DNA of 64,000 nucleotides from positions 496,001-560,000 of the forward strand of contig NZ_JAPNTZ010000005.1 in NCBI RefSeq assembly GCF_026626335.1. Direction: 5' to 3'. The position numbers were made by a program, and so were the translations under genes. The stretch's first letter is position 1; each line of letters opens with the position of its first letter. The notes under the pieces are model-generated. The model saw nothing but the letters and a program-made list of their open reading frames with translations, ran no database searches and was not told where the DNA came from. This DNA comes from Paractinoplanes pyxinae (lineage in GTDB: Bacteria; Actinomycetota; Actinomycetes; Mycobacteriales; Micromonosporaceae). Of this stretch, positions 1 to 10,158 are shown in pieces.

Positions 1-531
1 CCGGACCTCGGCCCCCGACTGGATCAGATCGAACAACACCTGGAGGAGATCGCGGAGGACAACACCTCGGTGGTGGCGGAGTTGCGCCGCATCGAGCACG
101 CCCGGCAGGAATCGGCCGACGCGCTGACCCGCACGGTGGCCGGCCTGCGCGAGGACCTCGAATCGGCTCTGGCCTACAACGCCCTGCGTGACCTCTGCAC
201 GGCGCTGACCGGCCCGCTGGCGGCGATCGAGACGATGGCCGCCGAGGCCGACTTCTCCGACCCGGCCCTTGCCGCCGGGCACGTGCGCGGCCTGGCCCTG
301 ACCCTGCGCGGCGTGCTCACCCGGCTCGGCGCCGAGGTGATCCCGGTGGTCGTCGGCCACGACTTGTACGACCCGATCCGGCACCGCTGCGTCGGCGTTG
401 TGCGGCCGGCCGAGTCACCTTTCCCGGACGCCCGGCCGCACACCGTGGTGCGGGTCGTCGAAGACGGATACGACCTGCGCCGGCGCCAGCTGGCCCCGGC
501 CCAGGTCGAAATTCAGGCCGACGGCCAGTGA
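1..531 (+). CDS. GrpE-like nucleotide exchange factor (5' end cut by window)
   Basis: The reading frame is open from base 1, so the start lies upstream and at least 176 codons are visible. The N-terminal part looks helical and charged (coiled-coil type). The C-terminal 60 residues read like the GrpE beta domain: LYDPIRHRCVGVV followed by HTVVRVVEDGYDLRRRQLAP resembles the family pattern (D)P..H.A.G.V...GY....R.L.PA.V. GrpE releases ADP from Hsp70, and the next gene, 10 bases downstream, is an Hsp70, which supports the call. The protein is divergent, and is probably a dedicated partner of this Hsp70 and not the housekeeping GrpE. A GTG at 70 could serve as an internal start, but the homology-like helical stretch continues upstream of it. 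Confidence 0.75.
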   Translation, partial: PDLGPRLDQIEQHLEEIAEDNTSVVAELRRIEHARQESADALTRTVAGLREDLESALAYNALRDLCTALTGPLAAIETMAAEADFSDPALAAGHVRGLALTLRGVLTRLGAEVIPVVVGHDLYDPIRHRCVGVVRPAESPFPDARPHTVVRVVEDGYDLRRRQLAPAQVEIQADGQ

Positions 532-541
532 GGAGCGCGAC

Positions 542-2416
542 ATGGCCTTTCACAAAGTGATCGGGATCGATCTCGGCACCACCTACTCTGCGGTGACGGT
601 GTGGGACGGCCGGGACACCGTGATCATCGAAAGCCGGATGGGCACCCGGGCCGTGCCGTCGGTGGTCGGCCTCGACCCGGAGGGCCAGGTGATCGTCGGC
701 ACCCCGGCCCAGAACAGCATGGTGAGCAATCCGGAGAACACCGTCATCGAGGTCAAGCGGGACATGGGTGTCTACGCCCGGCAGCCGACCGGGTCGGACG
801 CCGGCCAGCCCAAGTTGATCCCGTTCCGGGGCCGCGACTATCTGCCGCAGGAGATCTCCGCCTTCATCCTCAAGGAGCTCAAGCGGCAGGCCGAGGATTT
901 CATCGGTGAGCCGGTGCACGACGCGGTGATCACCGTGCCGGCCTACTTCCGGGAGCCGCAGCGGCGGGCGACCGAGGAGGCGGCCCGCATTGCCCGGCTC
1001 AACGTGCGCCGGCTGATCAACGAGCCCACCTCGGCCGCCGTCTGCTTCGGCGCCGACAAGGCCGAGGGCGACGAGGTACGCACGTACGCCGTCTACGACC
1101 TCGGCGGGGGCACCTTCGACGTCTCGCTCATCCAGGTCAGCCCGGGCAACGTCAGCGTCGTGGGCACCGGCGGCGACCCGCATCTGGGCGGCGGCGACTT
1201 CGACGATCGCATCGTGGAGTGGGCCCTGGCCGAGATCCAGAAGCGGCACGGTGTCGATCTGAGCGGCGACAAGCGGGTCCGCCGCCGTATCAAGCGCGAA
1301 GCCGAGATCCGCAAGCGGGAGTTGTCGACCGCCACCACGACCATGCTCGACCTGCCTTTCCTGACCGCCGAGGTCAGTGCGAACATCCCGCTGAGCCGGG
1401 CCACCTTCGAGTCGCTGATCAAGGACCTGCTCGACCGCTCGCTGGAATGCCTGGAGGAGGCGCTCGACTCGGCCTATCAGAGCAACGGCATCGAGCGCGC
1501 CGACATCGAGCAGGTGCTGTTGGTCGGCGGCTCGACCCGGATAGCGCGGATCCGGCCGATGCTCGCCGATCACCTCGGGATGGAGATGCGCGACATCCGC
1601 GGCGACATCAACCCGGACGAGGTCGTGGCCCGGGGCGCCGGCATGGTGGCCCGCGAGTTCACACCGGCCGACGGCTACGAGGGCCAGGAGGTCGCCGAGC
1701 CGCAGGCCGAGCCGGCTGGTGCGCCGCAGGACGAGGGCGGCATCCTCATCCTGCAGGACGTCACAAGCCATTCCCTGGGCGTGCACACCGAGCACGGGCG
1801 GTACTCGATCATCCTGCCCAAGGACAGCCGGATCCCGGGCTCGGCCACTCAGCACTACACCAACGCCGGCCCGTTCACCGCCCTCGACATCCTGGTCTTC
1901 CAGGGCGAACAGCCCGCCTCCTTCGACAACGACCTGGTCGGCACCGTCCCGATCACGTTTCCGGAGCCTCGCGAGCGTGGCTACTGGGATCTGGCCACGA
2001 CGTTCTCGCTCGACGTCGACGGGCTGCTCACCGTCGACGTCGTCTGTGTCAACAACAAGGACGCCTGGCAGGCCAAGTTGCACTGCGGCGTGCAGTCCGA
2101 CCGGGCCACGGTGGAACGCAGCGCGGAGCGGGCCGAGCAGGAGATGGCACGGCCCGAGGGGGCGGTCCCACCGCCGCCACCTGAGCCGCCTGCGGCGCCG
2201 CCCGAGCCGGTGCTGCCGCCGCCCACCGACGCCGTTCCCGAGCAGTTCAAATCGATCGCGCGACGGGCCTACAAGCTGATCGGGCGCCTCGACCCGGAGC
2301 CGGCGGCCAGACTACGCGAGGGCTACCTGGCCCTGCTGGCCGTGGCCGAGTCCGGATCCTCCGACCTCGAGGACGTCGGGGACGCCCTGGAGGACCTGTA
2401 CATCGAGGTGCGATGA
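542..2416 (+). CDS. Hsp70-family chaperone with non-canonical C-terminus
   Basis: 624 aa. The start ATG 542 is preceded by a GAGGAG ribosome binding site and gives the classic N-terminus IGIDLGTTYSAV (phosphate-1 loop, residues 8-18). DLGGGTFDVS (about 186-195) is phosphate-2 and LLVGGSTRI (about 326-334) is the adenosine motif, so the ATPase domain looks intact. A beta substrate-binding domain follows (about 398-530), including LPKDSRIP. In place of the usual DnaK helical lid there is a Pro-rich linker (about 540-565) and a roughly 60-residue helical tail. It sits between a GrpE-like gene and a pseudokinase gene that overlaps it by 4 bases. I infer an ATP-driven chaperone specialised for the products of this operon; no J-domain protein is visible in the window. 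Confidence 0.9.
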   Translation: MAFHKVIGIDLGTTYSAVTVWDGRDTVIIESRMGTRAVPSVVGLDPEGQVIVGTPAQNSMVSNPENTVIEVKRDMGVYARQPTGSDAGQPKLIPFRGRDYLPQEISAFILKELKRQAEDFIGEPVHDAVITVPAYFREPQRRATEEAARIARLNVRRLINEPTSAAVCFGADKAEGDEVRTYAVYDLGGGTFDVSLIQVSPGNVSVVGTGGDPHLGGGDFDDRIVEWALAEIQKRHGVDLSGDKRVRRRIKREAEIRKRELSTATTTMLDLPFLTAEVSANIPLSRATFESLIKDLLDRSLECLEEALDSAYQSNGIERADIEQVLLVGGSTRIARIRPMLADHLGMEMRDIRGDINPDEVVARGAGMVAREFTPADGYEGQEVAEPQAEPAGAPQDEGGILILQDVTSHSLGVHTEHGRYSIILPKDSRIPGSATQHYTNAGPFTALDILVFQGEQPASFDNDLVGTVPITFPEPRERGYWDLATTFSLDVDGLLTVDVVCVNNKDAWQAKLHCGVQSDRATVERSAERAEQEMARPEGAVPPPPPEPPAAPPEPVLPPPTDAVPEQFKSIARRAYKLIGRLDPEPAARLREGYLALLAVAESGSSDLEDVGDALEDLYIEVR

Positions 2417-3801
2417 CCGCGGCGCCGGAGACGGCCCGGCTCGGGAACTCCAGCCGTGGATCTCTGCGGCGGGAGGACGACCGGCTTGTGCGTGTGCTGG
2501 ACCCGCGGCAGTGCGACGAGCGGTTCCGGACGGCGCTGGCCGAGATCCGGGGCCGCGAGTGGCCGGACACGCTCCCGATCCTCACCCACGGACCGGCCGG
2601 CGACGGCTACCGCATCGAATACGCCGCGGACGGCATCCTGACCCTGGCCGAGGCATTCGAGGCAGTCACGCACTGGTCGGGCCGGCTGATCCTGGTGGCT
2701 GACGTGTGCGAGGCCGTGGACGTCTGGCACCGGGGCCGCGCGGCCGGCCTGGGACTCGACGCGCACACCGTCGTTGTCAAGTCCGGATCGGGCGGCATCC
2801 GCCTCGCGCCGTGCCCGCCGGTGCGGCCGGCTTCGCCACTCGATCTATCCGACGTGGACCCCGGCGCTCTGGCCGCGGTGGCGCCGGAAGCCGTTCGCGG
2901 CCTCCCGGCGCATCAGCGCGCGGAGGACGTCTACGCCCTCGGCACCCTGGCCGCGCTCGCCCTGGGCATCCGGCCCGAGGCGTCCGGCGACGGCCCCGGA
3001 CGCGTCGAGCGGCAGGCCCGCGGAGTGCTGCTCAAGGTGTCGGCGACGGCCACCGTGGTCGAGCCGTTCCTGCACACTTCGCAGCGGCTCGAGGCGCTGC
3101 TGACGACGATTCGCCGATGCCGTAACGATTCAGTGGACGCCCGGCCGACCGACGGCGCCGGGTTGCGACGCGCGCTGCTGGCGATGGCCGACCTCACCGG
3201 ACTGGCCGAGGAGGTCTGGCTGGCCGGTGATCCGGCCGGGGCGCGGTCGGTCCTGTCCCGGACCGGCCCGGGTTTCCGCAGCGACTGGCTGGCCGCGCGC
3301 ATCGCCACGGCCGAGGGTGACGGGGCCACGGCTTTCGAGCAGTATCGGCGCGCGGTCGAAACCGCACCGACCCAGTACCGGCTGCGGCAGCAGCGGTTCG
3401 ACGACATGTGGGCACTGTGGCAGGCCGCGGCCGATCCACCGCCGGAATGGGCCCGGGCGTTGCTCGACGATCTGGCGTTCCTGCGGCCGTTCGGCGAACT
3501 CCCCCCGGCTGAACTGTGGCTGCGGGAGGCCGAGGTGCACGAGCGGGCCGGGACCGACGGCCTCTACCGCGCCGCCCGGGCCCTGTACGAGGCGACGATC
3601 CGCGAACCCGACTCGTTCGCCGTCCTGCTGCGCTACGCGCGCTGCCAGCGCCGCATAAGCGAAGTCGAGGGGCGGGCCGACGCGGCCGAGGTGGACAAGA
3701 TCCGGCAGGTCGTGAGCAAGCGGCTCGACACGATGCTGCGCATCAAGGCGATCAGCCGGGAGGAGGCACAGCGATGGCGCACCCAGTTCGACGACGTGTG
3801 A
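2413..3801 (+). CDS. Protein-kinase-like pseudokinase with helical C-terminal region
   Basis: 462 aa; ATG 2413 overlaps the Hsp70 stop (ATGA), implying translational coupling. The first 190 residues follow a Ser/Thr kinase layout: a hinge-like stretch (YRIEYAADGILTLAEAF), a helix before the catalytic loop (VADVCEAVDVWHRG), and an APE/DVYALG block (APEAVRG at about 157, DVYALG at about 172). The catalytic loop reads GLGLDAHTVVV where active kinases have HRDLKPENVLL, and no DFG motif follows. The catalytic Asp, Lys and metal Asn/Asp are therefore absent, and it is most likely a pseudokinase. The remaining 270 residues look alpha-helical with TPR-like repeats (LAGDPAGARSVLSR, AFEQYRRAVE). A role as scaffold or client-recognition subunit of the Hsp70 is inference. 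Confidence 0.65.
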   Translation: MTAAPETARLGNSSRGSLRREDDRLVRVLDPRQCDERFRTALAEIRGREWPDTLPILTHGPAGDGYRIEYAADGILTLAEAFEAVTHWSGRLILVADVCEAVDVWHRGRAAGLGLDAHTVVVKSGSGGIRLAPCPPVRPASPLDLSDVDPGALAAVAPEAVRGLPAHQRAEDVYALGTLAALALGIRPEASGDGPGRVERQARGVLLKVSATATVVEPFLHTSQRLEALLTTIRRCRNDSVDARPTDGAGLRRALLAMADLTGLAEEVWLAGDPAGARSVLSRTGPGFRSDWLAARIATAEGDGATAFEQYRRAVETAPTQYRLRQQRFDDMWALWQAAADPPPEWARALLDDLAFLRPFGELPPAELWLREAEVHERAGTDGLYRAARALYEATIREPDSFAVLLRYARCQRRISEVEGRADAAEVDKIRQVVSKRLDTMLRIKAISREEAQRWRTQFDDV

Positions 3802-5567
3802 CCCGGGCCTTGCTCGTCGCGGGCCTGCTGCTGGTGGCCGGGGCGACACCGGCCGCGGCCGCGCCGGCGCCCTCTCCCGGGCCGGCGGCGACGGTGGTCG
3901 TGCCGCTTCCGGCCGGGGCCACCCTGCCTCCCGGCCGCTATCAGGTCACCCTGCGCGGCGGCGGCCGCCAGATCACCACCACCGGCTCGGTGTTGCCGGC
4001 CGCGCCCTCGGCCGCGCCGAGCCCGCCCGCCGAGCCGGACTCCGGCCCCGGCGCGTGGATCGGCCTGGGCGGCGCCGTCCTGCTGGCCGGGATCGGGGCC
4101 GGCCTCTATCTCGCCACGCGGGGTCCTCGGAGCCGCCGCCGAGAGTTCGAGCGGCTGGCCGGCCAGGTCGAGGCGGGCGAGTACCAGGCCGCCGTCGGAG
4201 GGTTGACCCGCCTCGAGAGCCAGCTCCCGCCCGCGCTGCGCGCCGAGGCTCGGTTTCTCTGCGGCTTCGCCCTCTACCAGCTGGGCGACCTCGACGAGGC
4301 CGAGCACCGGTTGGCCGCCTTGAATCGCGAGGATCCGGAGTCGTCCGAGGTGGCCTATCTGCTGGCCTACCTGCGCGTCCAGCGCCGCGACTTCGAGCGC
4401 GCGCAACCGGTGCTGGCCGCCCTCGACCGGCGAGGCCGGCTCGACGTCGGCCAGGCTCGCCGGTTGTACGGGGTTGTGCAGTACCAGTTGGCCGGCCGGG
4501 CGGCGTCCGAGGGACGCATCGACGACGCCGTGACCCTGTTCCGCGACGTCGAGCGGCTGGGCGACTTCCGCGACCGGGTACCGGCCGACCTGCGCAGCAA
4601 GCAGATCGTGCTGGGCACCCGGGCCCTGCTCGACCGGGATCCGGCGACCGCCCGCCGGCACTTCGAGGAGTTGCGTGACGCCGGCGGCGACGATGACCAG
4701 CAGGCTTCGGCCGCACTGGGTCTCGGCCTCACCGTCTGGGCCGAGAACAAGCCAGGCGCCGGCAAGAAGGTGCATCAGCTGCTGAGCCGCTGCTTGCGCC
4801 TGCTCGATCCGGACGGCCCGGCGACCCGGCGCTGGCCCGGTCCACCGTCCGAGACTGTGGCCGACGAGATCTCCCGCGTGCGCCGGGCGGGCGAGGCGCC
4901 CGCCGCCGACCGGGAGCGGGCGCGCCTGCTGGCCGACATCCACCTTTTGCGTGGCTGTGCGCTCGTGCGGGCCTTCGCCGAAGAGACCCCGCTGCTCGGC
5001 AGCGAGCGGCAGCTGCTCGGCGGAACGGCGGAGCGGCTCGCCTACGCACTGACCGACGTCCGGCAACTCGCCGACCCGTACCTGGTCGTCGGCCTGCTGC
5101 GGCACCACCTGGCCCGGGACGCGTCGGAGCGGCGGACGGCGATAGCCGAGCTTCAGGCGGCCCAGGCTCTGGGCGCGCGGGATCCGCTGCTGCTGGAGAT
5201 CCTGCACCGCCACGAGCGTCAGACCCAGCGACGCCGGGCCGTCTGGTCGGGGCACGCCGGGCGATATGGGCGTACGCCGACCGTCGACGACGTGACCTCG
5301 GCCGCGCCGGTCGGCCCGGTCTCCGCGCCGACCGTGGCCGAGCTCAGCGAGCGGGCCGAACTGCTGGCCGCCCGCCTGCATGCGATGGGCGCCGACCTGG
5401 GTGACTCCGGCGCGGCGGCAACCGCGCTGGCGGCCCGCCTGGAGCAGGAGAGCGCGGAGCTGACCCGCCGGGCGCGCGCGGTCGAGGCGACCGAGGCCGA
5501 ACTGCTGGCCCTGATCGGCGGGCGACTGCTGGCCGGGGACTTCGACGAGGACGGGAGCGGGACATGA
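3774..5567 (+). CDS. Membrane-anchored TPR protein of the Hsp70 operon
   Basis: 597 aa. ATG 3774 lies inside the 3' end of the pseudokinase gene (28-base overlap in another frame) behind GGAGGAGGCAC, and gives a signal peptide (RRRVTRALLVAGLLLVAGAT, Ala-rich cleavage region near residue 30). A short outside domain with a beta-like stretch (LPPGRYQVTLRGGG) and Pro/Ala linkers runs to about residue 92. One transmembrane helix follows (about 94-115), then a stop-transfer RGPRSRRR. The cytoplasmic 480 residues are helical repeats of TPR type (for example LCGFALYQLGDLDEAEHRL). It would place the chaperone complex at the membrane. No catalytic motif seen; function unknown. Confidence 0.75.
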   Translation: MAHPVRRRVTRALLVAGLLLVAGATPAAAAPAPSPGPAATVVVPLPAGATLPPGRYQVTLRGGGRQITTTGSVLPAAPSAAPSPPAEPDSGPGAWIGLGGAVLLAGIGAGLYLATRGPRSRRREFERLAGQVEAGEYQAAVGGLTRLESQLPPALRAEARFLCGFALYQLGDLDEAEHRLAALNREDPESSEVAYLLAYLRVQRRDFERAQPVLAALDRRGRLDVGQARRLYGVVQYQLAGRAASEGRIDDAVTLFRDVERLGDFRDRVPADLRSKQIVLGTRALLDRDPATARRHFEELRDAGGDDDQQASAALGLGLTVWAENKPGAGKKVHQLLSRCLRLLDPDGPATRRWPGPPSETVADEISRVRRAGEAPAADRERARLLADIHLLRGCALVRAFAEETPLLGSERQLLGGTAERLAYALTDVRQLADPYLVVGLLRHHLARDASERRTAIAELQAAQALGARDPLLLEILHRHERQTQRRRAVWSGHAGRYGRTPTVDDVTSAAPVGPVSAPTVAELSERAELLAARLHAMGADLGDSGAAATALAARLEQESAELTRRARAVEATEAELLALIGGRLLAGDFDEDGSGT

Positions 5568-5776
5568 CGGCGGACCGTGAGATCACCCGGCGGCATGCCG
5601 GGCTGCTGGACCGCCTCAAGCGGCCGGAGCTCGACGTCGACGAGACCGACGACGAGGACCTGCGCCACCTCGAGCTGCGGCGGGTGGTGCTCGAGGTGGC
5701 CGAGCTCGACCACGCGCAAGAGATAGCCCTGGTGCGGGCGGCGGTGGCACGCTTCGGGAAGGCCGGGCAGGCATGA
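5564..5776 (+). CDS. 70-aa charged helical protein of the Hsp70 operon
   Basis: 70 aa, overlapping the upstream TPR gene by 4 bases and the downstream TPR gene by 4 bases, so it is locked into the operon. The product is very acidic and basic in blocks (ELDVDETDDEDLRHLELRRVV) and predicted helical, with no signal peptide or membrane segment. I do not recognise the family. The double overlap is the best evidence that it is translated. It may be a small adaptor for the neighbouring TPR proteins (inference). Confidence 0.6.
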   Translation: MTADREITRRHAGLLDRLKRPELDVDETDDEDLRHLELRRVVLEVAELDHAQEIALVRAAVARFGKAGQA

Positions 5777-6921
5777 GCGACCCCGACGACTACGGCGGCG
5801 GCCTGGCCGAGCCCGAGAACCTCGCGGAGCGGCGCGACCAGGCGCGACGCCTCCACGGTGGGCTGTCGGGCGGCGGGCCGGCGAGCACCGTGAGCGATCC
5901 CGTCCGGCGACTGGTCGAGCGGGCCTGGCGCAGGTATCAGGAGGACGACTTCCAGGCCGCCATCGGCACGGCCGACGAGGCCTTGGACAAGGACCGGAGC
6001 TGCGCGGACGCCTGGCTGTGCAAGGCCGAGAGCCTCGCCCGGCTCGGGAACACCGACCGCGCCATCGAGGTGCTGCGGGACGCCCGGACCGCCGTCGTGG
6101 CATCCGCCCGGGCCGAGGTCGAACGTGTGCTGGAAGTGATCGTCGGGCAACGGACGACGCTGCAGGTCGAGCAGGCCCGCCGGGCGCTGCGCCGCAACCA
6201 GTCCGGCGAGGCGGCAACCCTGCTCGCCGACGTGGCGGCGGCGTTGCGGGACGATCCCGATTTTTCGGGGCGGCTGACGTACGCGCGGGAGAGAGCTGCC
6301 GCGGCCACCGAGCACCGGTCCCCGTTCACCTCCACGCAGCTCACCAACGCGGTGCTGCAGACCGTGCTCGGGTGGCTCTGCCGAGACGAGTTCGAGCACG
6401 GCGCCAAGGCGCTGGCCGACGAGGACTATCGCCGGGCCGAACAGCTCTTCGTCAACGCCCGCCGCGTCGACCCGCGCAACGCCAAGGCGGCTCTGCAGCT
6501 GGCCGTCGTGCTCGAAATGCAGGTCCGCACGGCCGAGTGGCCGGAGGAGATCCCGCGTCTGGCCGCGATCGTGGCGAAGAGCCGGGAGCGCGCGACCGAG
6601 GCGACCCGGCTGGCCGCCCTGGCAAAGGAGGACCGGACGCTGGCCGCTGAGGCCGAGACGGCGTGGACGCGGATCGACCGCCTGCGTGTGCAGAGCGTCA
6701 AACGACACCGCGTCATCGGGTGTTACGCCAATCTGTACGCGTTGCAGGACTATTACAGCCGGAACTCCGGCTATAAAAGCATTTATCTGAGCTCCTTCGT
6801 TCCGATCGCCGCGGAATCAGACCGCCTGCTCGGCCGCTACGGCCGGGACGACCCCGATGTCGGCATCTTCGTCTCGGCCCTCGCCGACCGGGTCGACCAG
6901 ATACGTCGTCGCACCGGCTGA
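5773..6921 (+). CDS. Cytoplasmic TPR-repeat protein of the Hsp70 operon
   Basis: 382 aa; ATG 5773 overlaps the previous stop (ATGA). Two clear TPR-like blocks are visible: RYQEDDFQAAIGTADEALD with CADAWLCKAESLARLGNTDR near residues 55-100, and ALADEDYRRAEQLFVNARRVDP with AKAALQLAVV near 215-250. There is no signal peptide or membrane helix. The last 70 residues are richer in Tyr and Ser (YANLYALQDYYSRNSGYKS), and the DNA there is AT-richer than the rest. It is the last gene of the run; a large hairpin starts 30 bases after its stop. Probably a protein-interaction module working with the Hsp70 (inference). Confidence 0.75.
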   Translation: MSDPDDYGGGLAEPENLAERRDQARRLHGGLSGGGPASTVSDPVRRLVERAWRRYQEDDFQAAIGTADEALDKDRSCADAWLCKAESLARLGNTDRAIEVLRDARTAVVASARAEVERVLEVIVGQRTTLQVEQARRALRRNQSGEAATLLADVAAALRDDPDFSGRLTYARERAAAATEHRSPFTSTQLTNAVLQTVLGWLCRDEFEHGAKALADEDYRRAEQLFVNARRVDPRNAKAALQLAVVLEMQVRTAEWPEEIPRLAAIVAKSRERATEATRLAALAKEDRTLAAEAETAWTRIDRLRVQSVKRHRVIGCYANLYALQDYYSRNSGYKSIYLSSFVPIAAESDRLLGRYGRDDPDVGIFVSALADRVDQIRRRTG

Positions 6922-6951
6922 CGCCGTTGTCAGCATTTGAACGAGTCGTTA

Positions 6952-7000
6952 CCTCGCGTCGTCGGTGCCGGGCAGAGTCCTCGGCAGCGACGACGCGAGG
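6952..7000 (+). promoter_or_regulatory. Long hairpin covering the alcohol dehydrogenase ribosome binding site
   Basis: A perfect 13-bp inverted repeat, CCTCGCGTCGTCG (6952-6964) and CGACGACGCGAGG (6988-7000), encloses a second 5-bp repeat TGCCG (6966-6970) / CGGCA (6982-6986), giving about 18 pairs with one G-G mismatch and an 11-nt loop. The 3' arm ends in GCGAGG, which forms the first half of the AGGAG ribosome binding site for ATG 7010. The structure could end the upstream operon transcript, hide the ribosome binding site of the next gene, or both. Confidence 0.7.
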
Positions 7001-7009
7001 AGACAGCTG

Positions 7010-8008
7010 ATGAAAGCAGTCCGGGTACACGCGTACGGGAAACGGCCGTCGGTCGACGACGTGCCGGAACCGCAGATCGGCGGGCCGCTCGACGTGATCG
7101 TGCAAGTGGGCGCGGCCGGGTTGTGCCGCACCGACCTGCACATCATCGAGGGGCAGTGGGCCGAGAAGTCGGGCGTGCAGCTGCCGTACACGATCGGGCA
7201 CGAGAACGCGGGGTGGGTGCGCGAGGTCGGCAGCGCGGTCACGAACGTCGCGCCGGGTGACGCGGTCATCTTGCATCCGCTGGTCACCTGCGGGCTGTGC
7301 CGGGCCTGCCGGTCCGGTGACGACGTGCACTGCGAGAACTCGAAGTTCCCGGGCATCGACACCGATGGCGGGATGGCCGACCTGTTGCTGACGAGCGCCC
7401 GGCCGGTGGTCAAGCTGGCCGACGGGCTCGAGCCGGCGGCCGTGGCGGCGCTGGCCGACGCCGGGCTGACCGCCTATCACGCCGTACGGAAAGCTCTGCC
7501 TTTGCTTTATCCGGGCCAGACCGTCGTGGTGATCGGCGCCGGCGGGCTCGGGCACATCGGCATCCAGTGCCTGCTGGCCATGACCGCGGCCCGGGTGGTC
7601 GTGATCGACCCCAACGAGAAGGCCCGCGAGCTCGCCACCGAACTGGGCGCGCACGAAGTCGTGGCTAACGGGAACGACCTGACCGACAGCGCCAACGTGG
7701 TGCTCGACTTCGTCGGGGAGCAGGGCGCCGAATCGCTGGGCCTGGCCATGACGCGGCGGGCCGGCAGCTACTACGTGATCGGCTACGGCGGCGCGGTGAA
7801 CATCCCGACGATCGACCTCATCTCGACCGAGCGCAACATCATCGGCAACCTGGTCGGCTCGTACAACGACCTCGACGAGCTCATGACGCTGGCCGCCCTG
7901 GGCAAGGTCACGCTGCACACCCGGCAGTACCCGCTGGCCGCGGTGAACGAGGCGATGGACGACCTCGAGGCCGGGCGGCTGCAGGGACGCGGCATCCTGG
8001 TGCCCTGA
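7010..8008 (+). CDS. Zinc-dependent NAD(P) alcohol dehydrogenase
   Basis: 332 aa, medium-chain dehydrogenase/reductase. Catalytic-zinc ligands are visible at Cys39 (LCRTDLH) and His64-Glu65 (IGHEN); the structural-zinc loop has four Cys (94, 97, 100, 108 in CGLCRACRSGDDVHC); the Rossmann motif is VIGAGGLGHIG at about residue 174. It would oxidise a short-chain primary or secondary alcohol to aldehyde or ketone in the cytoplasm. From memory it closely resembles the dehydrogenase found beside propane/methane-type di-iron monooxygenases (prm/mim clusters) of Rhodococcus and Mycobacterium. No oxygenase genes lie in the window. ATG 7010 has AGGAG 8 bases upstream, partly inside a hairpin. The amidohydrolase gene starts 1 base after its stop. 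Confidence 0.88.
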   Translation: MKAVRVHAYGKRPSVDDVPEPQIGGPLDVIVQVGAAGLCRTDLHIIEGQWAEKSGVQLPYTIGHENAGWVREVGSAVTNVAPGDAVILHPLVTCGLCRACRSGDDVHCENSKFPGIDTDGGMADLLLTSARPVVKLADGLEPAAVAALADAGLTAYHAVRKALPLLYPGQTVVVIGAGGLGHIGIQCLLAMTAARVVVIDPNEKARELATELGAHEVVANGNDLTDSANVVLDFVGEQGAESLGLAMTRRAGSYYVIGYGGAVNIPTIDLISTERNIIGNLVGSYNDLDELMTLAALGKVTLHTRQYPLAAVNEAMDDLEAGRLQGRGILVP

Positions 8009-8009
8009 G

Positions 8010-8978
8010 GTGTTCCGCCGGGACGGGGAGAGCTGGTTCGTCGTCGACGGGCACACCCAGTTCTGGGACGGCAGCCCGGCCAACCAGATCAACCGGTACG
8101 GCGAGGGCTACGTGCGCTGCCTGCACGACTTCCACCGCCGCCTCTCCCCCGCGGAGCACCGGTGGAGCTTGGCCGAGTTCGAGCGCTACCCCGAGGAAAG
8201 GCTGATCCACGACCTGTTCGAGACCGGGTACGACGACGTGGCGATCCTGCAGCCGGCCGACCGGCCCGACTGGTTCGTCAACGGCTTCGACACCACCGAG
8301 CAGAACGGCGAGGTGGCCGAGCGGCACCCGGGCCGGTTCGTGGTCAATGGCCGCTGGGATCCGCGCGACGGCGAGGCCGGGCTGGACCGGCTGGAGGCGC
8401 TGCATGAGCGGTGGCAACTGCCGGGGGTGATGGTGTGCACGGCCGAGTGGAAAGGAGTGAGCAAGGGCTGGCGACTGAGCGACCCCTGGGCCTGTCGCTA
8501 CCTCGAGAAGTGCGAAGAGCTCGGCATCCGCAACATCCACGTACAGAAGGGACCCGCCTTTTATCCGATGAGCCGGGACGCCGCCGACGTGGCGGATGTC
8601 GACGACGCGGCCACCGCCTTCCCCGGGCTGCGGTTCGTCGTCGAGCACGTCGGGCTCCCGCGGATCGAGGAGTTCTGCTGGATAGCGACGCAGGAGCCCA
8701 ATGTGTACGGCGGTCTTGCGGCCGCCCTGCCCTTCCTGCACACCCGGCCGCGCTATTTCGCGCGCATTCTCGGCGAGCTGCTCTACTGGATCGGCGAGGA
8801 CCGGATCCTGTTCGGCAGTGCGTACGCGATCTGGCACCCGAAATGGCTGATCGAACGGTTCGCCGCCTTCCAGATCCCGGAGGACATGCAGGGCGAGTAC
8901 GGATTGGTCACGCCCGAGATGAAGCGGAAGATCCTGGGTCTGAACGCGGCCCGCCTGTACGACCTCAAGGTGGAGTGA
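8010..8978 (+). CDS. Amidohydrolase-2 family protein, metal site degenerate
   Basis: 322 aa, GTG start one base after the dehydrogenase stop, so the two are co-translated. TIM-barrel amidohydrolase features: the N-terminal VVDGHTQFWDG stands where HxH is expected, with Gln in place of the second His; later blocks are FVVEHVGLPR and RILFGSAYAIW. In this family the last block usually carries a metal-binding Asp (GSDYP/SDYALW type); here it is Ala. Hydrolase activity is therefore doubtful. Similar proteins accompany the prm/mim alkane oxygenases, where the role is not settled as far as I know. The 3' end overlaps the convergent IclR gene by 14 bases. Confidence 0.8.
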   Translation: MFRRDGESWFVVDGHTQFWDGSPANQINRYGEGYVRCLHDFHRRLSPAEHRWSLAEFERYPEERLIHDLFETGYDDVAILQPADRPDWFVNGFDTTEQNGEVAERHPGRFVVNGRWDPRDGEAGLDRLEALHERWQLPGVMVCTAEWKGVSKGWRLSDPWACRYLEKCEELGIRNIHVQKGPAFYPMSRDAADVADVDDAATAFPGLRFVVEHVGLPRIEEFCWIATQEPNVYGGLAAALPFLHTRPRYFARILGELLYWIGEDRILFGSAYAIWHPKWLIERFAAFQIPEDMQGEYGLVTPEMKRKILGLNAARLYDLKVE

Positions 8979-9765
8979 TGCGGCCGGTACGCGCGGCCGT
9001 GCTCAGGGCGACGGCCCGGGTGGCCCGCACCGCGCCCAGCCGCACCGCCCGCTCCACCGACCACCTGTCCTCCCGCAACCGGGTCGTCGGCATCGAGACG
9101 GCCACCGCCCCGACGAAGCGCCCGGCGGCGTCGGTGACCGGGGCGGCCATGCAACTGAGGCCGTGCTGGAACTCGTCGACCTCGACGGCCAGGCCGGTGC
9201 CGGTGACCTGGCGCAACTGCCGGGCCAGCAGGCCGCGGTCGGTGACCGTGGCCGGTGTCACGGCTGGGGTGCCGGTGTGCTCGAGCAGGATCTCGCGGTC
9301 GTCGGCGGGCAGCCGGGCCAGCATCAGCTTGCCGAAGGCGGTGGCGTGCGGGGCCTGGTGGAAGCCGATCGTGAGGGGACGGATGCGTGGGTGCAGGGCG
9401 CACTCGGCCACGTGGGCGACGACCATCTCGGCGTCGCGCAGCGCGGCGTAGTACGCGGCGGCCTGGGCCTCGCGGTGGATCACCGAGGCGACCCGCCGCA
9501 CCTCGGGCGGCGCCTCGATCTGCCGGTGCAGGCCGCGGGCCAGGTCGTCGACCCGGTGGCCGAGGGCGTAGGCCCGCTCGTCGGACAGATGCACCAGATA
9601 GCCGCCGGCGACGAGGGTGGTGAGCAGGTGGTACGTGGTGGGCAGGGTGAGCCCGAGCGCCGCGGCGACGTGCTTGGCCTGCACCGGGCCCGGCGCGGCG
9701 GCGATGTGGTCGAGCACGCGCATGGCCCGCTCGACCGACTGCAGAACCCCGGTGCCCTTGTTCAT
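8965..9765 (-). CDS. IclR-family transcriptional regulator
   Basis: 266 aa. N-terminal winged helix (residues 10-70, with LGLTLPTTYHLLTTLVAGGY as recognition region) followed by the IclR effector domain (HATAFGKLMLA at about 140, and LSCMAAPVTDAAGRFVGAVAVS near 210-230). ATG 9765 is chosen because the HTH begins 10 residues later. It is divergent from the ABM monooxygenase gene (69 bases between starts) and convergent with the amidohydrolase (14-base overlap). IclR regulators usually sense small aromatic or aliphatic acids. Control of the adjacent monooxygenase or of the alcohol dehydrogenase pair is likely by position only. Confidence 0.9.
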   Translation of the reverse strand: MNKGTGVLQSVERAMRVLDHIAAAPGPVQAKHVAAALGLTLPTTYHLLTTLVAGGYLVHLSDERAYALGHRVDDLARGLHRQIEAPPEVRRVASVIHREAQAAAYYAALRDAEMVVAHVAECALHPRIRPLTIGFHQAPHATAFGKLMLARLPADDREILLEHTGTPAVTPATVTDRGLLARQLRQVTGTGLAVEVDEFQHGLSCMAAPVTDAAGRFVGAVAVSMPTTRLREDRWSVERAVRLGAVRATRAVALSTAARTGRITPP

Positions 9766-9834
9766 CACCCCAGCCTGGGGCCCTGGTAGAGATGGTGGAA
9801 GACCGTTGACGGATCGCGCGAAAGGGACATCGAC

Positions 9835-10158
9835 ATGATCTTCATTACCGCCAAGTTCCCGATCAAGCCGGAGTTCGCCGACCGCTGGCCCGAGATCGCG
9901 GGCCCGTTCACCACGGCGACGCGGGGCGAGGAGGGCTGCCTGTGGTTCGACTGGTCCCGCAGCCTCGACGACCCGACCGAGTACGTGCTGGTCGAGGCGT
10001 TCCGGGACGGCGACGCGGGCGCCGCTCACGTCGGGTCGGCCCACTTCAAGCAGGCCCAGCAGGACCTGCCACAGTATCTGCGGGCCACGCCCAAGATCGT
10101 GAGCCAGAACGTCGACCAGGACGGCTGGTCCGAGCTCGGGGAGCTCGCCGTCAAATAG
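9835..10158 (+). CDS. ABM-domain putative quinol monooxygenase
   Basis: 107 aa, the normal length for a single antibiotic-biosynthesis-monooxygenase (ABM) ferredoxin-like fold. Typical features are an early beta strand FITAKFPIKPEF, EEGCLWFDWSRSLDDP (the usual E.GC..F...S..DP block) and YVLVEAFRDGDAGAAHV with SAHFK. Relatives of YgiN oxidise quinols without a cofactor, but many family members are uncharacterised. A GAAAGGGAC ribosome binding site precedes ATG 9835. It is divergent from the IclR gene. Confidence 0.85.
   Translation: MIFITAKFPIKPEFADRWPEIAGPFTTATRGEEGCLWFDWSRSLDDPTEYVLVEAFRDGDAGAAHVGSAHFKQAQQDLPQYLRATPKIVSQNVDQDGWSELGELAVK

What the first reader, a model, noticed from the sequence alone, without database searches (positions are those of the whole stretch)
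1..6921. Hsp70-centred operon with GrpE-like, pseudokinase, membrane TPR and cytoplasmic TPR partners
Five genes overlap by 4-28 bases behind a GrpE-like gene, so their products are made together. Seen directly: Hsp70 with intact ATPase motifs but no normal lid, a kinase-fold protein without catalytic residues, a signal-peptide/TM/TPR protein and a soluble TPR protein. Known: Hsp70 plus GrpE forms a chaperone cycle. Inferred: a membrane-docked, dedicated chaperone machine in which the pseudokinase and TPR proteins recognise clients, possibly in stress or conflict signalling. I know of no characterised system with this exact composition.
Basis: partly seen in the sequence, partly recalled or inferred. 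Interest (0 to 1): 0.75.

Follow-up and report, generated by a model that had tools for sequence, protein, structure and literature searches.

The report
Hsp70 chaperone operon with TIR effector
A block of nine actinobacterial genes that is present or absent as one unit ties a private set of chaperones to a TIR domain like those of immune NAD-cutting enzymes, which suggests a chaperone-controlled defence or cell-death system not found in the papers searched.

Summary
The operon starts about 4.6 kb upstream and has nine genes: TIR–β-propeller, TPR1, J-domain-like protein without HPD, GrpE, Hsp70, pseudokinase-TPR, signal/TM-TPR, a 70-aa protein and TPR2, all overlapping by 4-28 bases except for a 10-base gap between GrpE and Hsp70. 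Five Micromonosporaceae genomes carry the genes in this order (one lacks GrpE); a sixth, divergent copy has six of them rearranged. The J-like marker was found in 6 of 354 family genomes; three class searches (394 genomes) found only the window's own copy. In 4 of 8 relatives examined the two flanking genes are adjacent, with no operon, so the nine genes come or go as a block. The Hsp70 is not the housekeeping DnaK, which has its own operon elsewhere. The kinase fold is confirmed on a structure model and its catalytic residues are missing. The TIR glutamate that aligns with a Glu of the solved NADase AbTIR is kept in 6 of 6. Best reading: a conflict (probably anti-phage) system in which a dedicated, non-canonical Hsp70 complex at the membrane holds or assembles a TIR effector. 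Function is inferred; nothing was tested at the bench.

The parts
1..531 (+). GrpE-like nucleotide exchange factor, 190 aa; its first 42 bases lie outside the window (L009:9959-10531)
   Evidence: PF01025 E 7.9e-6, 26.1 bits against a cut-off of 25.8; orthologue L047 8.1e-14; aligned with the genome's housekeeping GrpE
542..2416 (+). Dedicated Hsp70, 624 aa: NBD + SBD-beta, Pro-rich linker, short C-terminal stretch instead of the usual lid
   Evidence: PF00012 2.1e-121, profile 1-517/599; identity 61% in L017 and L018, 68% in L047, 64% in L048, 43.6% in L049; 34.8% to the genome's DnaK
2413..3801 (+). Pseudokinase domain (about residues 4-265) followed by TPR-like helices
   Evidence: AlphaFold2 pLDDT 87.4; Foldseek and VIA kinase fold; catalytic Lys, HRD Asp and DFG Asp absent as read by eye on alignments A2 and A6; APE kept 6/6
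3774..5567 (+). Signal-peptide-like segment, small outside segment, TM helix, cytoplasmic TPR, 597 aa (topology inferred)
   Evidence: hydropathy peaks at about 12 and 96 with a basic stretch after the second; TPR_19 7.4e-8 and TPR-S 0.0014, the latter below cut-off
5564..5776 (+). Small conserved protein, 70 aa, no family
   Evidence: no Pfam match; 47-59% identical in 4 other loci
5773..6921 (+). Soluble TPR protein (TPR2), 382 aa; the block ends at its stop codon
   Evidence: TPR_19 4.2e-9; 31-39% identical in 4 other loci; junction alignment

Best explanation
A nine-gene conflict (most likely anti-phage, cell-suicide-type) system. Shown: a private chaperone set (Hsp70, HPD-less J-like protein, usually GrpE) is encoded as one unit with a TIR–β-propeller protein, a pseudokinase-TPR protein, two further TPR proteins and a membrane TPR protein, and the unit is present or absent as a block. 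Inferred: the TPR and pseudokinase proteins form a scaffold tethered to the inner face of the membrane; the Hsp70, with its altered J partner, holds the TIR effector inactive or sets a threshold for its assembly; when infection or proteotoxic stress draws the Hsp70 away or changes a guarded component, the TIR domains cluster and cleave NAD+ (or make a signal from it), stopping the infected cell.
For: Operon extends into a TIR–propeller gene (model pLDDT 78.3; WD40 propeller matches). The TIR aligns with solved bacterial TIRs including NAD(+) hydrolase AbTIR (1.7e-6) across the W-x3-E stretch; this Glu (E81) is invariant 6 of 6 (that it is the catalytic one is recalled). Same gene order in four other genomes and a rearranged copy in a sixth, whose pseudokinase, TM and propeller proteins are related by profile comparison (E 7.8e-6, 4.7e-6, 1.9e-6; probability 84-90%). 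Patchy: J-like marker in 6 of 354 family genomes. MMPL and ADH flanking genes adjacent with no operon in 4 of 8 relatives examined; native intergenic DNA resumes after the TPR2 stop; none of the window locus's flanking genes found in the stretches fetched for the other five loci. Weak matches of the TIR gene to ThsB, retron-TIR and other defence TIR models. Not housekeeping: a complete dnaK-grpE-dnaJ set with a MerR-type regulator lies elsewhere. Precedents in print: HSP70+GrpE in predicted actinobacterial conflict systems (PMC7159879, passages); DnaJ needed for phage sensing by bNACHT25 (PMC12169576, abstract).
Against: No function has been tested. The window locus's neighbours look ordinary: luciferase-like monooxygenase, SmpB, MMPL, alcohol dehydrogenase, amidohydrolase, IclR regulator, with no integrase and no tRNA; the pseudokinase has no match in 72,556 plasmid or 50,697 phage records. 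Of flanks searched by family at four loci (L009, L017/L019, L018/L020, L048, and L049) only Dactylosporangium's look conflict-like; L047's were not searched. PADLOC models gave nothing for the eight non-TIR proteins. The TIR Glu region also aligns with scaffold TIRs such as MyD88. One of six copies (L018) has an in-frame stop in hsp70 between NBD and SBD. Hsp70s have many non-immune roles.
Confidence: 0.45

Rival explanations
1. A dedicated chaperone machine for folding, assembling or inserting particular envelope or secreted proteins; the TIR domain is only a scaffold (as in MyD88-type adaptors) and there is no immune role.
For: Membrane TPR protein with signal-like and TM segments; three TPR proteins (TPR1 below cut-off in the window copy) plus TPR-like helices on the pseudokinase; the TIR also matches MyD88/TIRAP adaptors, more weakly; ordinary neighbours.
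Against: Best solved matches are bacterial TIRs including a named NAD+ hydrolase, and E81 is invariant; the J-like marker was not found in 348 of 354 family genomes, unlike a core envelope machine; no shared client gene in the flanks.
Confidence: 0.25
2. A physiological signalling unit (development, stress) in which the TIR makes an NAD-derived messenger read by an unlinked receptor, with the Hsp70 as sensor of protein damage.
For: TIR Glu conserved; chaperone sensor logic is plausible (inference).
Against: Restricted, block-wise distribution fits an accessory conflict gene set better; no messenger receptor domain among the operon's Pfam matches.
Confidence: 0.12
3. A divergent branch of the GAP1-N2/DO-GTPase conflict systems with HSP70 and GrpE described by Kaur et al. 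2020.
For: Those systems also pair HSP70 with GrpE, and with DnaJ- or TPR-fused proteins, in actinobacteria (PMC7159879, passage).
Against: No GAP1-N2, GTPase or FNIII domain matched in the operon's nine genes; the one GAP1-N2 match in the genome is on another contig, C44:378079.
Confidence: 0.08

Closest known systems
HSP70/GrpE-containing GAP1-N2 (DO-GTPase) conflict systems, Kaur et al. 2020 eLife (PMC7159879, passages)
   Same: HSP70 with GrpE and DnaJ/TPR partners in actinobacterial multi-gene loci predicted to act by thresholding of effectors
   Different: Here no GAP1-N2, GTPase or FNIII match; instead TIR-propeller, pseudokinase-TPR, membrane TPR and an HPD-less J-like protein
TIR-effector anti-phage systems (Thoeris, TIR-containing retrons and others)
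   Same: TIR domain with the conserved Glu; weak model matches ThsB 8.8e-7, retron TIR 8.4e-7, far below the latter's cut-off
   Different: No SLOG, STAND or reverse-transcriptase partner matched in the operon; chaperones stand in their place
Housekeeping DnaK-GrpE-DnaJ (own genome, L010)
   Same: Hsp70 ATPase motifs, GrpE, a J-domain-like protein
   Different: 34.8% identity to own DnaK; lid profile not matched; J-like protein has neither HPD nor DnaJ central and C-terminal domains
MoxR-vWA ternary conflict systems (PMC7159879, passages)
   Same: NTPase chaperone core with TPRs, propellers, kinases with disrupted catalytic residues and TIRs among the parts
   Different: No MoxR or vWA match here; Hsp70 instead
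bNACHT25-DnaJ (PMC12169576, abstract)
   Same: Immune sensing that goes through an Hsp70-class co-chaperone
   Different: Uses the host DnaJ and a NACHT protein; here the chaperones are private and the putative effector is a TIR

Membership tests
Hsp70 chaperone superfamily | Actin-like ATPase with phosphate-1 and phosphate-2 motifs | tested here: met
   PF00012 2.1e-121; IGIDLGTTYSAV and VYDLGGGTFDVS
Housekeeping DnaK | DnaK equivalog score and full-length Hsp70 profile with lid | tested here: not met
   TIGR02350 431.3 bits against a cut-off of 822.55; profile ends at 517/599, whereas own DnaK reaches 598/599
J-domain proteins (DnaJ/Hsp40) | J-domain by sequence | tested here: met
   PF00226 over cut-off in L018 only (2.4e-7, 31.2 against 27.8 bits); below cut-off in L047 (3.8e-5) and in the window copy (9.1e-5, 22.9 bits); profile A4 hits ordinary DnaJs; L017, L048, L049 not scanned
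J-domain proteins (DnaJ/Hsp40) | HPD motif | tested here: not met
   Absent in 6 of 6 against the genome's own DnaJ, which has it
Protein kinase-like fold | Bilobal kinase fold | tested here: met
Active protein kinases | VAIK Lys, HRD Asp, DFG Asp | tested here: not met
   By eye with the model's strands: Arg (R27) at the Lys position and PCP at DFG, both invariant in the five close copies; no HRD Asp; the sixth (L049) also lacks them
TIR NADases | TIR domain with the Glu of the W-x3-E stretch | tested here: met
   PF13676 3.4e-18; alignment with AbTIR; E81 6/6
TIR NADases | NAD+ hydrolysis in vitro | not testable with these tools
   needs an enzyme assay
GAP1-N2/DO-GTPase HSP70 systems | GAP1-N2 and DO-GTPase genes in the locus | tested here: not met
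   no such Pfam match in the operon genes; PF20013 in the genome only at C44
Thoeris | ThsA-type partner gene | tested here: not met
   no ThsA or SLOG match in the operon by Pfam or PADLOC

The most novel reading that the evidence does not exclude
A chaperone-gated TIR immune machine: a dedicated Hsp70 whose J partner has lost its ATPase-triggering motif acts, with a pseudokinase and TPR scaffold at the membrane, as the guard and threshold for a TIR NADase, a bacterial counterpart of chaperone- and pseudokinase-guarded TIR immunity (the plant comparison is recalled, not searched).
Probability: 0.35. Interest if true: 0.85.

Novelty: new variant of a known kind. Interest (0 to 1): 0.62.

Why it matters
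If true, it shows Hsp70 chaperones recruited as the dedicated regulatory core of a bacterial immune or cell-death system, with a J-protein that lacks HPD in all six copies seen, and gives a testable model of how chaperones set the firing threshold of TIR enzymes. Even if the immune reading is wrong, it is a compact Hsp70 machine, present or absent as a block, with an altered J partner and a pseudokinase, useful for asking how an Hsp70 works without HPD.

Tried and rejected
Housekeeping DnaK: rejected. GAP1-N2 membership: rejected. Movement by plasmid, phage or tRNA-integrated element: no support (no integrase among the neighbours scanned). Foreign base composition: the operon's 1-kb bins are 0.69-0.76 GC, the flanking bins 0.68-0.73, so not informative. 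No sigma-70-like promoter site between 5200 and 17100 of L009.

In one search the fourth protein (L009:9526-9962) was given in the wrong frame, as was the translation; the true J-like frame (9516-9962) was scanned.

Hsp70 side of the J contact: I looked at the positions of DnaK R167, D393 and D481 (named in PMC7289447, passages); the correspondence was made by eye and E. coli DnaK itself was not aligned. R167 position: R, K, M, R, R, Q (window, L047, L048, L017, L018, L049); D393 position kept in 5 of 6; D481 position D, N, D, H, N, N, but the genome's own DnaK also has N. Only the first is suggestive and half the copies keep R; I do not rest the case on it.

Hits not counted as members: J-domain-only matches in 86 of 394 class genomes (none beyond profile position 92) and in 15 of 354 family genomes, plus extra ones in G075 and G115 (none beyond 107); of these only G075:C65 (L050) was looked at and it holds a 372-aa DnaJ-like gene. 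Searches score only some candidates per genome (11, 10, 3, 5), and the Hsp70 class search used a strict 1e-140, so distant relatives may be missed. The divergent pseudokinase found only its own genome in 270 family genomes. The genome-contig scan with three J-like sequences returned only Virgisporangium and Dactylosporangium. A2 against solved structures was dominated by TPR matches, kinases only at E 0.02 or weaker, so the kinase call rests on the model. In the rearranged copy L049 the window's own TIR, pseudokinase and TM proteins gave no tblastn hit at 0.01; their relation rests (TIR 6.8e-17), and TPR1 matched over its first 100 residues only. At the insertion site only 8 of the 28 same-genus genomes with a 71-87% MMPL match were examined; four of the eight have neither ADH nor operon there. 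Gain rather than loss is not settled.
Full report
OBSERVATION. Hsp70 (542-2416) matches PF00012 at 2.1e-121 over profile positions 1-517 of 599, so the ATPase and beta substrate-binding parts are matched and the lid part is not; the genome's own DnaK is matched to 598. GrpE just passes its cut-off in the window copy (26.1 against 25.8 bits) and clearly in an orthologue (52.1 bits).

THE OPERON IS LARGER. The window lies at G000:C41:496001-560000. In the upstream DNA (L009; window x = L009 x+10000) the chain of overlapping genes continues: a J-like gene (L009:9516-9962, overlaps grpE by 4), an 801-aa TPR gene (7124-9529, overlaps the J-like gene by 14) and a TIR gene (about 5364-7127, overlaps TPR1 by 4). 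Before it lies an MMPL gene; after TPR2 lies a zinc alcohol dehydrogenase gene (ADH). Both flanks are ordinary: luciferase-like monooxygenase and SmpB on one side, amidohydrolase and IclR regulator on the other.

NEIGHBOURHOOD. A pseudokinase search found the window genome and two others among 150 family genomes. A J-like profile searched 354 family genomes: 21 had a match at 1e-5, of which five are full length (200-273 bits; window, G075, G115, G636, G586), one is divergent but reaches position 143 (G559, 32.8 bits), and 15 match the J-domain part only. All five full-length loci have TIR, TPR1, J-like, Hsp70, pseudokinase, membrane TPR, small protein and TPR2 in that order; four also have GrpE, Virgisporangium does not. 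The divergent G559 locus (L049) carries J-like, Hsp70 (43.6%), pseudokinase-TPR, a TM protein, TIR-propeller and TPR1, in that different order and without GrpE; the small gene and TPR2 were not found there. Its pseudokinase, TM and propeller proteins are related to the five-copy profiles at 7.8e-6, 4.7e-6 and 1.9e-6. In 394 class genomes only the window's own copy was found with the pseudokinase, at full length with the J-like profile, or past the Hsp70 threshold.

PRESENT OR ABSENT AS A BLOCK. 38 of 40 same-genus genomes, own included, have an MMPL relative at 1e-120; 28 of the 39 others have one at 71-87% identity. I fetched eight of these 28. In four (L073, L074, L075, L077) the MMPL match is followed about 110 bp later by the ADH match (94% identical), with no operon; in the window genome the same two points are about 11.8 kb apart. 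The other four (L072, L076, L078, L079) have no ADH match in the stretch fetched and no operon between MMPL and the next conserved gene. The native intergenic DNA is recognisable straight after the TPR2 stop. None of the tested flanking genes of the window locus occur in the stretches fetched for the other five loci.

NOT HOUSEKEEPING. The genome has 13 Hsp70 match places, about ten genes. Its real DnaK (822 bits) lies with grpE, dnaJ (HPD present) and a MerR-type regulator, HspR-like by position. The operon's Hsp70 scores 431 bits against a DnaK cut-off of 823.

MECHANISM. Shown: composition, order, block-wise presence, kinase fold without catalytic residues, J-like protein without HPD, TIR with its Glu. 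Inferred: membrane tether with the TPRs inside (basic residues follow the second hydrophobic segment); chaperone gating of the TIR; infection as trigger. In known pairs the HPD faces R167 of DnaK, J-domain contact is essential for ATPase stimulation and the D35N change of HPD is non-functional (PMC7289447, passages), so the J-like protein is more likely a docking or restraining subunit than a normal activator.

LITERATURE. Six searches aimed at the gene set (one search listed 20 of 22) showed no paper that by title or abstract start describes it; only open-licence PMC papers are held, no supplements were read, and PMC7159879's locus tables were not seen. Closest is PMC7159879 (passages): HSP70+GrpE neighbourhoods with GAP1-N2 and, separately, TIR effectors, propellers and inactive kinases in chaperone-based conflict systems. 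PMC12169576 (abstract) reports DnaJ needed for phage sensing by a bacterial NLR-like protein. PMC8195603 (passages) has HSP70 only in animal proteins and a reference.

VERDICT.

Noticed in passing
L012:6568-12268 (G000:C7): A second unusual Hsp70 in the same genome: Hsp70 domain plus WD40-like repeats (859 aa) beside two dynamin-family GTPase genes on the opposite strand.
   Followed up: partly
L010:7679-9394 (G000:C9): A dynamin-family GTPase gene lies beside the housekeeping dnaK operon.
   Followed up: partly
L011:7483-9450 (G000:C42): Another Hsp70 whose N-terminal part is 51% identical to the operon's Hsp70, closer than DnaK; none of the operon's other genes were matched in the 16 kb around it.
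   Followed up: partly
L018:8859-8861: Dactylosporangium vinaceum hsp70 carries an in-frame TAG between the ATPase and substrate-binding parts, so this copy may be split or decaying.
   Followed up: partly
L018:14003-18889: Next to the Dactylosporangium operon lie a subtilase, a CHAT-TPR protein and an EAL protein.
   Followed up: no
L017:14861-17476 and L018:2211-4706: TIR-propeller proteins with a kinase-like stretch (below cut-off) between the two domains, absent from the window genome's version.
   Followed up: partly
G000:C44:378079-378480: The genome also has a GAP1-N2 match, on another contig than this operon.
   Followed up: no
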